This document shows positions 1 to 36,114 of a DNA stretch of 36,114 nucleotides, piece after piece. The position numbers and the translations under genes were made by a program. This stretch comes from a virus, in IMG/VR virus record IMGVR_UViG_3300009553_000014, positions 1 to 36,114 of that record; one strand, given 5' to 3'. The stretch's first letter is position 1, and each line of letters opens with the position of its first letter. The notes beneath the pieces were generated by a model. That model was given only the letters and a program-made list of their open reading frames with translations. It was not told the DNA's origin and searched no databases.

Positions 1-123
1 CGTTTCTTTAAGCTTTTCATTAAGGTTATAAACCGCCTTTTCTGCAGATTCCCCCCACGAAAAATTATGAGGGTCTACCTCTCCTTGGTAATATGCGCAC
101 CAACTACGCTTGGGCGCTGGATC
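1..123. repeat. Terminal direct repeat, left copy
   Basis: The first 123 bases are identical to bases 35992-36114. A reading frame continues across the joint without interruption, so the repeat marks a circular or circularly permuted molecule of about 35,991 bp. A repeat this short may simply be an assembler overlap; a physical short terminal repeat is the alternative. Confidence 0.95.
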
Positions 124-2847: not shown

Positions 2848-3036
2848 CTAGTATTTAATGTCAACATTATTTTCATATTTATTTATTATTTTTTTAATAG
2901 CTTCCCTAACTAGAGCACTCATGCTTATTTCTTCTTCACAAGATATTTTCTTAAAAGATTTCCAAAGATCGTATTCTAGAGGAATAACTATTATTTTATT
3001 TGATTTTTTATTAATTAGCTTTTTGGGATTTTTCAT
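2848..3036 (-). CDS. Ribbon-helix-helix DNA-binding protein paired with nuclease
   Basis: A 62-residue basic protein. After a lysine/asparagine-rich arm, the strand IIVIPLEYDLW leads to helix KSFKKISCEE, the turn ISMSAL and helix VREAIKKIINKY, a typical CopG/Arc layout. Its start lies inside the 3' end of the upstream nuclease gene (26 bases shared), so the two are co-translated. A repressor-like RHH protein tightly linked to a nuclease could be an autoregulator or a DNA-targeting partner. Classic antitoxin order (antitoxin first) is reversed here, so a toxin-antitoxin call is not made. Confidence 0.7.
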   Translation of the reverse strand: MKNPKKLINKKSNKIIVIPLEYDLWKSFKKISCEEEISMSALVREAIKKIINKYENNVDIKY

Positions 3037-3445
3037 ACTTTTTCCTTTTGTCTTTAAAAGACAGAACTGTTAAATCATTAAATCTATCAGAATAGATATA
3101 ATATTTTTTCTTAATTTCCTTTTTTATCAAGGAATTAATGCTTTTTTCTACATTTTCTAAATCATTTATAACTACAATAGGACATTTTAATTTTTTATAT
3201 CTATATAGTTGTTGTTTCAACAAATATTTCTGTTTAAATGCAGATTTAGTTTTGCATTCAATTATAATGCTTTTATTATTTATAATTATCACCGCATCTA
3301 GCCTACCAATCGTTGGTATTATTATTTCCAAATGACAGGGTATATTATTATTTTTGCAAAAAAAATATATTTCAGCTTGTATATTTCTTTCATTTTTTTT
3401 GTTGATAAATACTAGTCCATTGTATTTTGGAAATAATTCATTCAT
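3011..3445 (-). CDS. PD-(D/E)XK-superfamily nuclease
   Basis: A 144-residue, lysine-rich protein. Candidate active-site residues are visible in the right order: E25 in the first helix (NIQAEIYFFCKN), D50 in GRLDAVI, then the E63-C-K65 strand motif (IIIECKTK) and Q79 in the next helix (KQQLYRY). This is the layout of PD-(D/E)XK nucleases related to VRR-NUC and Holliday-junction resolvases. The gene is first in the leftward early unit, about 24 bases after the predicted transcription start, and its end overlaps an RHH gene. Roles could include recombination, host DNA breakdown or exclusion of other phages. The Shine-Dalgarno is poor. Confidence 0.7.
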   Translation of the reverse strand: MNELFPKYNGLVFINKKNERNIQAEIYFFCKNNNIPCHLEIIIPTIGRLDAVIIINNKSIIIECKTKSAFKQKYLLKQQLYRYKKLKCPIVVINDLENVEKSINSLIKKEIKKKYYIYSDRFNDLTVLSFKDKRKKYEKSQKAN

Positions 3446-7503: not shown

Positions 7504-7517
7504 CTAAGGAAAGTTAT
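7500..7517 (+). promoter_or_regulatory. SD-in-loop hairpin before terminase large subunit
   Basis: ATAACT (7500-7505) and AGTTAT (7512-7517) pair around the loop AAGGAA. The stem includes the first two bases of the ATG at 7516, so the hairpin both displays the ribosome site and partly hides the start codon. Confidence 0.6.
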
Positions 7518-9072
7518 GGTATCTCTTGCGCAGTGTCGCCAGGAGTTCAATCAAATTCGTGATTCTTTATCACGAACACAATCGCAGCACATACAATTTA
7601 ACAAGGATGAAACCATTATTTATGCAAGCGATAAAAATAAGATTTATGTACCCTCTCCTACTGGTAAATTGTTTCATGAGTCTAATAGTTTTATTAATCT
7701 CGTTATCGGTCCTTATGGATCTGGGAAAAGTACAATGTGCATTAACCATATTGTTAAAACAGTATGCGATATGCCCAGATGGCATAATGGAAGACGCAGA
7801 GCAAGATGGGCAATTGTCAGGAATACATCGGGTGAGTTATATTCCACCACCTTACAAACGTGGCTCACATGGTTCGGAGAACTTGGCGATGTTCGTAAGC
7901 GTCAAAAACCATTACTCACCTATGAGCATATATTCAATGATGGAGCTGGAGTAGTTGAACTTGAACTTATTTTCATTGCTCTCGATCGTGAAGAGGACTT
8001 ACGAAAGATTAAGTCCCTTGAGGTTACAGGTGCTTATATTAACGAACTTAGTGAAGTTCCGCAGGGTGCTTTGGCGCATTTTAAGGGTCGTGTTAATAAG
8101 CGTTATCCTTCTCGTAGTTTTTGTTCAGAAGATTATTGGTCGGGGATTATTGCTGATACGAACCCTCCTGACATCGATCATTGGATCTATAGAGACTTCG
8201 AACAAAAATCTCTTGAATCTTATCGGATCTTTCATCAACCACCAGGATTATTAAAGCAAGACGGGATTTGGGTATTAAATCCTGATTGTGATAATGCCGC
8301 TAATTTAGCCCATGATTATTACACAAAGTTGGCAGAAGGCCAGACAGAAGACTTTGTTAAGGTCTTTTGTCTTGGCGAATATGGATCTGTTGGTTTTGGT
8401 AAAAAAGTCTACCCCGAATTTAATCCTGACCTACATGCTGTTGCTACCCTTCAGGCACTGCAAGGAGAGCCGTTATATTTGGGGCTAGATTTTGGTCTAA
8501 CTCCTGCTTGTGTTGTAATGCAGGTATCTCCGCGCGGTCAGTTGATGGTACTCAAAGAATACATCGGTATCGATATCGGTATTAGATCATTCATTGAAAT
8601 GGTGGTCATACCTGGGTTGAAGAAAGACTTTCCTTATTGCCCGAGATGGCAAGCTTATGCAGATCCTGCAGGTAACAATAGATCTGAAATCATGGATGAG
8701 ATGTCTTGCATAGGAGAGGTTAATCAATTAGGAATTGATTGTGAGGCAGCACGCACTAATGATATAGAGCCACGATTAGCATCAGTGCGGTTTTATCTTA
8801 ATCGCATGATTGATGGTAAGCCTGCATTTATCATGGATCGCACTCAGTGTCCTACATTGTTACGTGGTTTCATTAAAGATTACGTGTATAAGCGTTTGGC
8901 TGTATCAGGTGAAGAGAGATTCAAAGATAAGCCAGATAAAAACATGTCATCACATCCAATGGATGGGTTAGGATATGGATGCATTGAACTGGCATCAGAT
9001 AATATAGCGCGAGATAAATCGGTTAAACAGAAAGTTGATATGAATAACCCGGTGTTTAGGTGGAGTAATTGA
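7516..9072 (+). CDS. terL: Terminase large subunit (packaging ATPase/nuclease)
   Basis: A 518-residue protein with Walker A GPYGSGKST at residues 65-73, a Walker B-like strand GAYINELSEV near residue 175, and a C-terminal RNase H-like nuclease domain with acidic residues in YLGLDFGLTP, AYADPAGNN and SHPMDGLGYG. It drives DNA into the prohead and cuts concatemers. The length and motifs are normal for TerL. Its TGA overlaps the next ATG (TGATG). Confidence 0.95.
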   Translation: MVSLAQCRQEFNQIRDSLSRTQSQHIQFNKDETIIYASDKNKIYVPSPTGKLFHESNSFINLVIGPYGSGKSTMCINHIVKTVCDMPRWHNGRRRARWAIVRNTSGELYSTTLQTWLTWFGELGDVRKRQKPLLTYEHIFNDGAGVVELELIFIALDREEDLRKIKSLEVTGAYINELSEVPQGALAHFKGRVNKRYPSRSFCSEDYWSGIIADTNPPDIDHWIYRDFEQKSLESYRIFHQPPGLLKQDGIWVLNPDCDNAANLAHDYYTKLAEGQTEDFVKVFCLGEYGSVGFGKKVYPEFNPDLHAVATLQALQGEPLYLGLDFGLTPACVVMQVSPRGQLMVLKEYIGIDIGIRSFIEMVVIPGLKKDFPYCPRWQAYADPAGNNRSEIMDEMSCIGEVNQLGIDCEAARTNDIEPRLASVRFYLNRMIDGKPAFIMDRTQCPTLLRGFIKDYVYKRLAVSGEERFKDKPDKNMSSHPMDGLGYGCIELASDNIARDKSVKQKVDMNNPVFRWSN

Positions 9073-11777: not shown

Positions 11778-12482
11778 ATGAAAGACTGTAAATGTAAAGA
11801 AAGTTATGATCCATGCTGTAACCGAATGAAAGGTGAACAAGGGCCAGCTGGGATCCAAGGACCTCGAGGAGAGGCGGGAAGAGACGGCAAAGACGGTTTG
11901 GATGGATTACAAGGACCTCAAGGTATACAAGGTGTTCAAGGTATTCCAGGTTCGTGCGTTAATTGCGAAGGCAATGGCGAGCCTCATTCTTGCGATTGCC
12001 CGGAACCAGAGTTTGCAGAGGTGTTTTCTAAAACCAATCAAGATTTGGCGGCTTCTCCCGGATCATTACTACCAGGACAGGTTGTTATTTTGGAAAATAC
12101 GATTTTTGCAACATCTGGTATTGATGTGTCACAAGCAAGCGTAAACGGTCAGATAGTTATTAATAAAGCAGGATGGTATGACGTTGCAACAGGGATTTGT
12201 GGTTCTTTGAATCCTATTGCTTCTCCTTTGCCATGCTGGACATTATCGCTATTTGTAAACGGTGTTTATGTTCCCGGGTCTACTTTTGCTAATCAAACAA
12301 TTTCTCCTGAACAAAAAGCAAATGAAATTGTAGCTGATGTGTTCGTGCATTTTAATAAAGGTGATGTATTAACTTTAGCAAATACAAGTAATGCTGTTGT
12401 CAATATGTCTGCCCCTACATTGGGTACGAATGCTCCAGCAAGTAGTGCTTATATGAAGATTATCATGTTGAAATCTGATTAG
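11778..12482 (+). CDS. Collagen-like protein with C-terminal jelly-roll-like domain
   Basis: A 234-residue protein. Residues G19-G58 are an unbroken run of 13 Gly-X-Y triplets (for example GEQGPAGIQGPRGEAG). Cysteines flank it on both sides (C4, C6, C13, C14 and C60-x2-C63 onward), which could lock a trimer. Residues about 78-234 form a beta-rich domain (GQVVILENTIF...GWYDVATGICG...LSLFVNGVYVPGS) like the trimeric BclA/C1q-type heads. The likely product is a virion fibre or decoration that binds host or environment. TAGGAG precedes the start and a terminator follows. Confidence 0.85.
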   Translation: MKDCKCKESYDPCCNRMKGEQGPAGIQGPRGEAGRDGKDGLDGLQGPQGIQGVQGIPGSCVNCEGNGEPHSCDCPEPEFAEVFSKTNQDLAASPGSLLPGQVVILENTIFATSGIDVSQASVNGQIVINKAGWYDVATGICGSLNPIASPLPCWTLSLFVNGVYVPGSTFANQTISPEQKANEIVADVFVHFNKGDVLTLANTSNAVVNMSAPTLGTNAPASSAYMKIIMLKSD

Positions 12483-12492
12483 TTGGTACGTT

Positions 12493-12520
12493 AAATAGGG
12501 AGATTAACTTCTCCCTATTT
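12493..12520 (+). terminator. Rho-independent terminator
   Basis: AAATAGGGAGA (12493-12503) pairs perfectly with TCTCCCTATTT (12510-12520) over a six-base loop, followed by an ATTT tract. It ends or attenuates transcription after the collagen-like gene. Confidence 0.7.
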
Positions 12521-12537
12521 ATTTGGAGAACTGAATA

Positions 12538-12699
12538 ATGGATAACAAAATAACTAAGAATGGATGGGAAAGTACTCGAATAAAAGAGCTCACTCCTGGT
12601 ATTCAAAATAAATATGAGAAAGCTAATTTCAAGAATCTTGATTTTCATAAATCTCAGCTAAAGAATGAAGAACTATGGTATAGGGTTCAGCAGCGATAG
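12538..12699 (+). CDS. Small charged protein of unknown function
   Basis: A 53-residue hydrophilic protein (MDNKITKNGWESTRIKELT) ending LWYRVQQR. TGGAGAA lies upstream. No family recognised. It starts right after the terminator, in the block before the portal gene. Confidence 0.6.
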   Translation: MDNKITKNGWESTRIKELTPGIQNKYEKANFKNLDFHKSQLKNEELWYRVQQR

Positions 12700-12717
12700 G
12701 ATTCAATTAACTAAGGA
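12700..12717 (+). repeat. Repeated translation leader
   Basis: GATTCAATTAACYAAGGA occurs here and again at 12999-13016, in each case just before a start (12727 and 13027). Copies of the same leader next to each other suggest local duplication; the 12999 copy forms a much better hairpin. Confidence 0.5.
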
Positions 12718-12726
12718 GAGCAGTGA

Positions 12727-12945
12727 ATGTTATTTTCAGATGCGTTGAGACTATTACAGCAAGGTGAATTTTTAGTAAGAGAAGCATGGGCAGGAACAGA
12801 GTATATCTGTCATATGCCTGGTATGCAGTCATTGTGGAGAGTAATAACGCACCCAAGTGCTCAAGCCGGTAATTGGCAGCCTTTGATGGAAGATCTATGT
12901 GCAGAAGATTGGAAGTCATATGAAAGGTCTAAACCAGTACAATAA
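12727..12945 (+). CDS. Tad2-like protein (DUF2829), putative anti-Thoeris sponge
   Basis: A 72-residue protein matching the short DUF2829 pattern: MLFSDALRLLQQGEFLVREA then W-A-G, a YICHMPGM strand, LWRV, and the C-terminal LCAEDWKSYE. DUF2829 includes Tad2, a phage protein that binds the cyclic ADP-ribose signal of the Thoeris system and so blocks the abortive response; some members also bind CBASS signals. The N-terminal FxxAL-x-LxxG and final (A/E)EDW motifs are both visible. Its place between collagen-like and portal genes is unusual for an early anti-defence gene, so late expression or virion association should be considered. Ligand specificity cannot be read from sequence. Confidence 0.75.
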   Translation: MLFSDALRLLQQGEFLVREAWAGTEYICHMPGMQSLWRVITHPSAQAGNWQPLMEDLCAEDWKSYERSKPVQ

Positions 12946-12956
12946 TAGATAAAACG

Positions 12957-12990
12957 CATTCAGCACTGTCTAGGATGATGGTGCTGAATG
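12957..12990 (+). other. Perfect 10-bp hairpin before the portal gene
   Basis: CATTCAGCAC (12957-12966) pairs with GTGCTGAATG (12981-12990) over a 14-base loop. No T tract follows. It may stabilise the portal mRNA 5' end or mark a processing site. Confidence 0.5.
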
Positions 12991-13004
12991 AAAGTCACGA
13001 TTCA

Positions 13005-13024
13005 ATTAACCAAGGATGGTTAAT
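13005..13024 (+). promoter_or_regulatory. SD-in-loop hairpin before portal
   Basis: ATTAACC (13005-13011) and GGTTAAT (13018-13024) form a 7-bp stem around loop AAGGAT; the ATG is at 13027. Confidence 0.65.
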
Positions 13025-16203: not shown

Positions 16204-17424
16204 ATGCCCAATCAATTTATCACAACTCAATTAGTTAGTAACACCGCCTTAGCAATGTTTGCAAATAATGCACCATTTGTTATGACTGGTTCTCGTATTT
16301 ATCAAGATGATTTCAATAGTTCAGGTTATAAAATCGGCGATACTTTACAAGTTCGTAGACAAAATAACTTTGTTATTGGAGATGGTTCAACTGCTGTTCC
16401 TCAAGATATTATTGAGACTGTAGAAACTATCACTGTCGCTCATCAATATCATGCCCTCATTGCTTATACGATTCAGGATCTTTCTTTAAGAATTGAAGAC
16501 TTTTCTCGTATGTTTATTCAGCCTGCGATTCAAAACATCATTTCGCAAATGGAACGTGATGTCAGTTCTGCAGCCGAACAACAATTATATTTATTTTCTG
16601 GAACGGCAGGCAGTCCAATTAATTCATTTCAAACAGTAGATTTGGCTGGTGCTAAGCTTTTAGAAATGGGCGTTAATATTGCATCTGATGCATATCTTGC
16701 AATGACTGTTCGAGATGGAAGTGCATTAAAGTCTGCATTATTAAATAACTTTACTCCAGTATTTAATGAAGACATTGTGAGACAATCTGCAATTGGTCAC
16801 TTATCTTATTTTGATATTTTCCAATCACAAAATATTGTTCAGCATGTGGCTGGTGCTGGTCCTCTTTTGCATCCTGGTGACACTTTAACTGTGAATGGTG
16901 CGGTTGCGTCAGGTAGCACCCTTGTCCTTGCAGGTGCAAACGGTGGTGGTGCTGCTGTTACAAATTACTTTTTACCTGGGGATTTAATTTCTATTGCAGG
17001 TGTTCATAGCGTAAATCCTCTGTCCCGTCAATCTACTGGTCAGAACATGCAGTTTGTTATCACGCAAGCGGCATCTTCATTATTGGGTGGTGCTATTTCA
17101 ATCACTGTTTCTCCAGTGATAAATAGCAACAGTGCTAGCCCTTTACAGAACATTGATGCAGTTATACCAAATGGTGCTGCAGTGACCGTTGTACCAAGCT
17201 ACAATGTAAACGTTGCATATCCTGCTCGTGGATTAGATATTGTATGTCCTCCGCTTTATAAGTTACAAGTTCCATATTCCAGTGTTGCAATTGATCCTGA
17301 AACTGGTCTATCACTTGCTGTAACTCAGACTGGCGATATCTTGGGATATCAAAACTTTATGCGTATAGATGTTTTATGCGGATTTTTATGGCATCCGCAA
17401 TATGCTGTGAAATTACTGTCATAG
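16204..17424 (+). CDS. Major coat protein (P22 gp5-like)
   Basis: A 406-residue protein with an N-terminal helix and a central segment resembling the P22 coat insertion domain: LPGDLISIAGVHSVNPLSRQ resembles the P22 stretch that reads G-D-K-I-S-F-A-G-V. HK97-fold capsid protein by homology with P22 gp5 (430 residues). The start follows an AAGGAT motif within a CTA-CC/GG-TAG imperfect hairpin. It forms the icosahedral shell. Confidence 0.85.
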   Translation: MPNQFITTQLVSNTALAMFANNAPFVMTGSRIYQDDFNSSGYKIGDTLQVRRQNNFVIGDGSTAVPQDIIETVETITVAHQYHALIAYTIQDLSLRIEDFSRMFIQPAIQNIISQMERDVSSAAEQQLYLFSGTAGSPINSFQTVDLAGAKLLEMGVNIASDAYLAMTVRDGSALKSALLNNFTPVFNEDIVRQSAIGHLSYFDIFQSQNIVQHVAGAGPLLHPGDTLTVNGAVASGSTLVLAGANGGGAAVTNYFLPGDLISIAGVHSVNPLSRQSTGQNMQFVITQAASSLLGGAISITVSPVINSNSASPLQNIDAVIPNGAAVTVVPSYNVNVAYPARGLDIVCPPLYKLQVPYSSVAIDPETGLSLAVTQTGDILGYQNFMRIDVLCGFLWHPQYAVKLLS

Positions 17425-31207: not shown

Positions 31208-31248
31208 AAAACCCGCTGGGGTGCGCATTTTTAAGAGGCGTAGCGGGT
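31205..31248 (-). terminator. Leftward rho-independent terminator
   Basis: On the minus strand ACCCGCT (31248-31242) pairs with AGCGGGT (31217-31211) and a run of T follows (31211-31206). It ends the leftward DUF6496-like gene; on the plus strand no T tract follows. Confidence 0.6.
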
Positions 31249-34499: not shown

Positions 34500-34581
34500 T
34501 GGATTGGGGTGGATTCGAACCACCTCGCCTTAAGGGAACAGATTTACAGTCTGTGGCAATCGACCACTCTGCCACCAATCC
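34500..34581 (-). tRNA. tRNA-Tyr (GTA)
   Basis: A complete cloverleaf: acceptor GGATTGG/CCAATCC, D-arm with GAGTGGTCGA, anticodon stem ACAGA-CTGTAAA-TCTGT (anticodon GTA), a 13-nt variable region as in class II tRNA-Tyr, T-arm GGTGG-TTCGAAT-CCACC, discriminator A. CCA is not encoded. It is at the far end of the leftward early unit and probably supplies Tyr codons; no integrase makes use of it as an attachment site evident here. Confidence 0.93.
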
Positions 34582-35949: not shown

Positions 35950-36114
35950 TTATGTTATATCAAAATTATTATCAAAACTATCAGTATCTTGCGTTTCTTT
36001 AAGCTTTTCATTAAGGTTATAAACCGCCTTTTCTGCAGATTCCCCCCACGAAAAATTATGAGGGTCTACCTCTCCTTGGTAATATGCGCACCAACTACGC
36101 TTGGGCGCTGGATC
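35950..36114 (-). CDS. Small HicB-like protein, 3' part (gene crosses the window ends)
   Basis: This is the right-hand piece of the gene whose start lies at 174. The last 13 residues outside the repeat (QDTDSFDNNFDIT) and the stop at 35950-35952 lie here; bases 35992-36114 repeat the left end. Joined, the protein has 71 residues. The uninterrupted frame supports a circular molecule. Confidence 0.75.
   Translation of the reverse strand, partial: DPAPKRSWCAYYQGEVDPHNFSWGESAEKAVYNLNEKLKETQDTDSFDNNFDIT
35992..36114. repeat. Terminal direct repeat, right copy
   Basis: An exact copy of bases 1-123. Together they define the unit length of about 35,991 bp. Confidence 0.95.

What the first reader, a model, noticed from the sequence alone, without database searches (positions are those of the whole stretch)
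12727..12945. Tad2-like anti-Thoeris candidate inside the structural region
A 72-residue protein has the DUF2829 pattern including ALRLLQQG and AEDW. Tad2 proteins sequester cyclic ADP-ribose type signals of the Thoeris defence, and some bind CBASS signals. Its place directly before the portal gene suggests late expression or packaging, unlike usual early anti-defence genes.
Basis: partly seen in the sequence, partly recalled or inferred. Interest (0 to 1): 0.65.

Follow-up and report, generated by a model that had tools for sequence, protein, structure and literature searches.

The report
Tad2-like phage protein before portal gene
A small gene next to the capsid genes of an uncultured phage encodes a protein with the fold of Tad2, which soaks up bacterial alarm molecules, so it is probably counter-defence cargo of a known kind, although its binding site is changed and its target is untested.

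Summary
Window 12727-12945 (+) encodes a 72-residue protein that matches Pfam PF11195 (Tad2-like; 35.8 bits, cut-off 25). It has a confident predicted fold (pLDDT 92) that superposes on solved Tad2 structures (Z 10.8, 1.4 Å, 64 residues). Homologues sit between terL and portal in 23 of 42 related phage contigs, under strong purifying selection. So it is a real, accessory gene of the Tad2 family.

The protein lacks the roughly 20-residue insertion that other Tad2 proteins have between strands 2 and 3. The canonical N-G-K, MKTAD and SQTD motifs are replaced by a clade-specific PGM...WK...PNPNAGNWxP motif. Ligand and target are therefore open, and CBASS-signal binding is less likely. The late, structural-region position is not unusual: Skulduggery, Koot, KPPK108.2 and EF2-1 have comparable placements. 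Nothing suggests that the protein is packaged.

Best reading: a late-expressed Tad2-fold sponge for an ADP-ribose-type signal. It is a new member of a known kind.

Side finds: tandem two-domain Tad2 proteins in relatives, a covarying hairpin over the portal ribosome-binding site, and a solitary abiF antitoxin-type RNA.

The parts
12727..12945 (+). Tad2-like gene, 72 aa
   Evidence: PF11195 35.8 bits; AF2 fold pLDDT 92.4, Z 10.8 to SPO1 Tad2
12700..12717 (+). Leader of the Tad2-like gene; 17/18 direct repeat of the portal leader, holds AAGGA ribosome-binding site
12999..13016 (+). Second copy of the 18-nt repeat, in the portal leader; the two copies bracket the Tad2-like gene
12492..12521 (.). 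Strong hairpin after the collagen-like gene, upstream boundary of the unit
   Evidence: RNA fold -17 kcal/mol, z -4.0; not called a terminator by the scan
12957..12990 (+). 14-bp hairpin between the Tad2-like gene and portal; no T-run
   Evidence: RNA fold of the gap -28.7 kcal/mol, z -6.4
13005..13024 (+). Hairpin with the portal Shine-Dalgarno AAGGA in its loop, covarying in relatives
12538..12699 (+). 53-aa gene of unknown family just upstream, probably same transcript
   Evidence: no Pfam or PHROG match; similar ORFs near portal in L012, L013, L047, L066, L081
13027..15210 (+). Portal protein (P22-like)
   Evidence: PF16510 E=1.1e-102, phrog_156
11778..12482 (+). Collagen-like protein, upstream neighbour
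   Evidence: PF01391, phrog_30509
7516..9072 (+). Terminase large subunit, left boundary of the variable terL-portal interval
   Evidence: phrog_2 E=3e-25
16204..17424 (+). Major capsid protein, downstream in the same module
   Evidence: phrog_283 E=1e-49

Best explanation
The gene encodes a short Tad2-family protein. It is accessory counter-defence cargo in the variable interval between terminase and portal of a clade of uncultured P22-like podoviruses. Most likely it assembles, like Tad2, into an oligomer with pockets formed by the beta3-beta4 loop, strand beta4 and the beta4-alpha3 loop. There it holds an ADP-ribose-type nucleotide alarm (cyclic ADPR isomer, His-ADPR or a relative) made by a TIR enzyme during infection, so that the host effector is not switched on. 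Because it lies in the structural operon, it is probably made together with portal and capsid. That timing fits, because a Thoeris sensor is reported to recognise the major head protein. Shown here: the family, the fold, conservation, purifying selection and the accessory, recurrent position. Inferred: oligomer, ligand, late timing and anti-defence effect.
For: PF11195 match above its cut-off. The profile of 29 relatives finds SPO1 Tad2, ModTad2, SptTad2 and HgmTad2/AcrIIA7 in the PDB at E 4e-12 to 1e-9. AF2 model pLDDT 92.4, VIA Z 9.7-10.8, rmsd 1.4-1.8 A over 63-65 residues to all solved Tad2 proteins, against Z 5.7 for the next unrelated chain. The residues conserved in the clade (P31 G32 M33 W37 P43 A47 G48 D56, with N49 W50 P52 in close relatives) cluster in or next to the loops that line the gcADPR pocket of SPO1 Tad2 according to PMC12043709. 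Present in 23 and absent from 19 related contigs that carry both terL and portal, as expected of cargo and not of an essential part. The major head protein as Thoeris trigger is from PMC12043709.
Against: Of 12 residues invariant in a set of classical Tad2-like proteins (F7 G17 R22 G24 W25 N26 G27 F31 W73 S76 D79 D84 in SPO1 numbering), the clade reliably keeps only F, G, R, W, W, D and D. The N-G-K and MKTAD motifs are gone. The host is unknown, so no Thoeris or CBASS system can be paired with it. No ligand or expression data exist. Many PF11195 proteins have no tested function.
Confidence: 0.55

Rival explanations
1. Tad2-fold protein that binds a different nucleotide signal (not a Thoeris cADPR), for example of another TIR, CBASS or unknown system, using its remodelled pocket.
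For: Clade-specific motif PGM...WK...PNPNAGNWxP replaces the canonical pocket-side motifs; members of the fold already bind gcADPR, His-ADPR and cGG (PDB titles).
Against: The insertion that a review links to dinucleotide binding is absent (PMC12043709), so a classical CBASS dinucleotide is less likely; no positive evidence for any other ligand.
Confidence: 0.25
2. Head assembly or neck protein: a structural or morphogenetic factor with a Tad2-like fold, placed before portal because it acts in head assembly.
For: Position 81 bp before portal, in the structural operon; weak fold resemblance to a neck chain of phage 812 (8qkh_S, Z 5.7, rmsd 5.0 A).
Against: Absent between terL and portal from 19 of 42 related contigs, and from some long contigs of relatives altogether; diverges much faster than portal or capsid (mean identity 44% against 70% and 85%); much closer to sponge proteins than to 8qkh_S.
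Confidence: 0.08
3. Anti-CRISPR of the AcrIIA7 type: PF11195 includes proteins deposited as AcrIIA7 inhibitors of type II CRISPR-Cas.
For: The profile matches 8kbi ('Inhibitor of Type II CRISPR-Cas system') and 9kzr (AcrIIA7) at E 3e-10 to 1e-9.
Against: The same protein is titled HgmTad2 in entry 8kbj and solved with 1',2'-cADPR, so the Acr label may not be its main role; its profile E-value is weaker than that of the Myroides Tad2.
Confidence: 0.05

Closest known systems
SPO1 Tad2 (gp34.65; PDB 8sme, 8smf, 8wje)
   Same: Family PF11195 and fold; keeps the F, G, R, W, W, D, D positions; Z 10.8 over 64 residues
   Different: 89 aa against 72; SPO1 has about 20 more residues between beta2 and beta3 and the NGK and KTAD motifs; encoded among many small genes near the right end of a myovirus, not in a structural operon
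ModTad2 (PDB 8v3e, 9eib; binds His-ADPR)
   Same: Best profile match in the PDB, E 4e-12; Z 10.2-10.4, 30% identity over 64 aligned residues
   Different: Longer middle; GWNGKGM and LKTVD motifs absent from the window protein
HgmTad2/AcrIIA7 (PDB 8kbi-8kbm) and SptTad2 (8wjd)
   Same: Same fold (Z 9.7-10.3)
   Different: 101-104 residues, with the long insertion; solved with 1',2'-cADPR and/or cGG; the window protein lacks the insertion
Tad2-like gene p015 of Sinorhizobium phage AP-20-A (PMC13299392)
   Same: PF11195 gene in a podovirus, function untested
   Different: 97 aa, 50% identical to ModTad2, i.e. a classical member; MCP and TerL of that phage are closest to Paenibacillus phages
Tad2-like ORF gp08 of Pseudomonas phage Skulduggery
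   Same: Same interval, between terL and portal
   Different: 164-aa protein with the domain at its C-terminal end

Membership tests
Tad2-like (PF11195) | Profile match above the curated cut-off | tested here: met
   35.8 bits against 25; hhalign 98.6% to known Tad2 set
Tad2-like (PF11195) | alpha-beta fold of solved Tad2 proteins | tested here: met
   AF2 pLDDT 92.4; Z 9.7-10.8, 1.4-1.8 A to all solved members aligned
Tad2 anti-Thoeris sponge | Homotetramer with shared pockets | not testable with these tools
   only single-chain prediction was available
Tad2 anti-Thoeris sponge | Conserved residues of proven Tad2 proteins around the pocket (NGK after W, MKTAD, WxxSQTD) | tested here: inconclusive
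   7 of 12 classical invariants kept, NGK and MKTAD replaced by a clade-specific motif; which ones contact ligand could not be checked
Tad2 anti-Thoeris sponge | Binds gcADPR or His-ADPR | not testable with these tools
   needs purified protein
Tad2 anti-Thoeris sponge | Protects phage against Thoeris | not testable with these tools
   needs an infection assay
Tad2 variants that bind cyclic dinucleotides | Insertion between beta2 and the following strands | tested here: not met
   insertion absent in the window protein and its clade; role of the insertion from PMC12043709
AcrIIA7 anti-CRISPR | Inhibits type II CRISPR-Cas | not testable with these tools
   only family-level similarity

The most novel reading that the evidence does not exclude
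This clade is a distinct Tad2 subfamily with a rebuilt pocket that holds a signal not yet known to be sponged, and it is deployed late, in the same transcript as the capsid protein that triggers the alarm. Some relatives also carry a two-domain, strand-swapped Tad2 tandem in the replication gene cluster, with another specificity.
Probability: 0.25. Interest if true: 0.62.

Novelty: new member of a known kind. Interest (0 to 1): 0.38.

Why it matters
It extends a proven counter-defence fold to a large uncultured podovirus clade and shows that Tad2-like genes recurrently sit in structural modules. This suggests that sponges can be timed to a late, capsid-triggered alarm. The clade-specific pocket motif gives a ready panel of about 25 natural variants for ligand screening.

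Tried and rejected
NCBIfam gave no match. PADLOC gave no match for the protein and only weak hits elsewhere. A first scan of viral contigs with the single protein found one distant relative; scanning with portal and capsid instead gave the relatives. Alignment A2 was too diverse for a scan, and the hits of A3 looked like more of the same clade. Host search: the capsid matches only two MAG contigs, labelled Sulfuricurvum and Planctomycetota, which is not convincing as a host, so pairing with Thoeris failed. The papers with SPO1 Tad2 pocket residues are not held, so pocket contacts could not be mapped residue by residue. Gene exchange of the Tad2-like gene is suggested by poor agreement of its distances with portal, capsid and terL, but the test is inconclusive (rho 0.22, p 0.09 with portal; portal-capsid rho 0.60, p 0.002). 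The 18-nt repeat that brackets the gene may only be a shared leader, because relatives have different leaders before this gene. A second Tad2 copy in the window was looked for and not found.

Full report
Observation. The ORF at 12727-12945 (+) is as described: 72 residues, ALRLLQQG and AEDW present. Pfam PF11195, Tad2-like, matches residues 1-63 at 1.2e-8 and 35.8 bits (cut-off 25). PHROGs gives only weak matches and NCBIfam none. The next gene downstream is a P22-type portal, 81 bp away. The window is an IMG/VR virus record with a 123-bp terminal direct repeat, so the genome is complete. It holds exactly one PF11195 match.

Relatives. Scans with portal and capsid protein returned a large clade of uncultured phages, with portals mostly 59-77% and capsids 78-89% identical to the window's. 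ORF searches found the Tad2-like gene in many of them, nearly always on the same strand between terL and portal. Of 42 distinct contigs in which terL and portal were both found, 23 have it in that interval and 19 do not. It is therefore accessory cargo in a variable interval that also holds other small genes and, in some relatives, tRNAs. Mean pairwise identity is 44% for this protein, 70% for portal and 85% for capsid. dN/dS of the closest pairs is mostly 0.04-0.14 with high dS, so the protein is under purifying selection.

Fold. AlphaFold2 with 29 relatives gives pLDDT 92.4 and the order H3-11, E16-18, E25-28, E37-40, E46-49, H54-58, E62-64. Foldseek and VIA-align 2 put the solved Tad2 proteins on top (Z 9.7-10.8, rmsd 1.4-1.8 Å, 63-65 residues), and the next chain, a phage 812 neck protein, far below (Z 5.7, rmsd 5.0 Å). 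The PDB profile search agrees.

What differs. Aligned with classical members, the clade lacks roughly 20 residues between beta2 and beta3, has no GWNGKGM and no MKTAD motif, and instead conserves PGM...WK...P.PNAGNWxP. It keeps the arginine and tryptophan after beta1, the second tryptophan, and the D...A.DW end. According to PMC12043709, the gcADPR pocket of SPO1 Tad2 is built from the beta1-beta2 loop, beta3-beta4 loop, beta4, beta4-alpha3 loop and alpha3, and dinucleotides bind through the insertion. The clade's conserved residues fall in the beta2-beta3, beta3-beta4 and beta4-alpha3 regions. So a pocket is plausibly kept but rebuilt, and dinucleotide binding is less likely. This is inference from position; contacts could not be measured.

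Place in the genome. The unit is bounded by two strong hairpins, 12492-12521 and 12957-12990, and by an 18-nt direct repeat (17/18) at 12700 and 12999. Tad2-like genes in unrelated phages vary in place. SPO1, VLCpiS11a, Listeria LMTA-57, PVP21 and SopranoGao have them among small accessory or early-type genes. Skulduggery has one between terL and portal, Koot between internal virion proteins, KPPK108.2 right after capsid, and EF2-1 right after coat protein. A late position is therefore recurrent. Since PMC12043709 reports that a Thoeris sensor recognises the major head protein, making the sponge with the capsid is a sensible, untested rationale.

Verdict. It is a confirmed Tad2-family gene. 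Its anti-defence role is likely, anti-Thoeris is the leading guess, and the ligand is open. The kind is known, and a PF11195 gene in a podovirus has already been published (PMC13299392). What is new is the clade, its changed pocket motif and its position.

Side findings. Relatives carry a second protein with two tandem Tad2-like halves, in several cases close to the DUF669 gene. Its model (pLDDT 91.4) aligns 68 residues, taken from between positions 1 and 130, to a single Tad2 chain (Z 12.3, 1.4 Å), and its beta3 and beta4 run on as one long strand. This suggests two Tad2 units that swap halves within one chain; it is a prediction only. The portal leader forms a hairpin with the ribosome-binding site in its loop: in 39 sequences 94.9% of cells pair and the covariation score is 0.778, against 0.197 in shuffles and at most 0.172 in slid versions. 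A solitary abiF RNA lies at 31211-31247 (-), 46.4 bits (cut-off 37), with no Abi_2 gene in the genome. abiF motifs form the antitoxin RNA of AbiF toxins (PMC12373285), so this could be a second, RNA-based counter-defence element.

Noticed in passing
window 13005-13024 (+); same place in 46 further leaders of relatives: Hairpin directly before the portal start with the Shine-Dalgarno AAGGA in its loop; the stem covaries strongly across relatives (94.9% paired, score 0.778 against 0.197 shuffled). Looks like a translational operator or a presented ribosome-binding site.
   Followed up: partly
window 31211-31247 (-): Solitary abiF RNA (RF03085, 46.4 bits) between two convergent genes, without any Abi_2 toxin gene in the genome; could act as a decoy antitoxin against host AbiF, or be only a terminator-like hairpin.
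   Followed up: partly
L120:1105-1494, L121:478-879, L122:1-345, L123:622-1005, L124:788-1159, L125:516-911, L126:818-1195: Relatives encode a protein of about 125-135 aa with two tandem Tad2-like halves, in several cases close to the DUF669 gene; the AF2 model (pLDDT 91.4) suggests an intramolecular strand swap. The window lacks it.
   Followed up: partly
L128:464-1181: Three consecutive Tad2-like ORFs just upstream of terL in one relative.
   Followed up: no
gaps between the Tad2-like gene and portal in L005, L032, L065, L077: Similar structured-looking non-coding stretch (..GGC..CGATACT....GGGGAAAATAGGCC..), no Rfam match apart from a tRNA in L032.
   Followed up: no
window 1-123 and 35992-36114: 123-bp terminal direct repeat: the record is a closed or terminally redundant complete genome.
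   Followed up: yes
window 3011-3445 (-): Small protein with weak similarity to the nuclease part of Card1/Csx1-type proteins.
   Followed up: no
window 34500-34581 (-): tRNA-Tyr gene.
   Followed up: no
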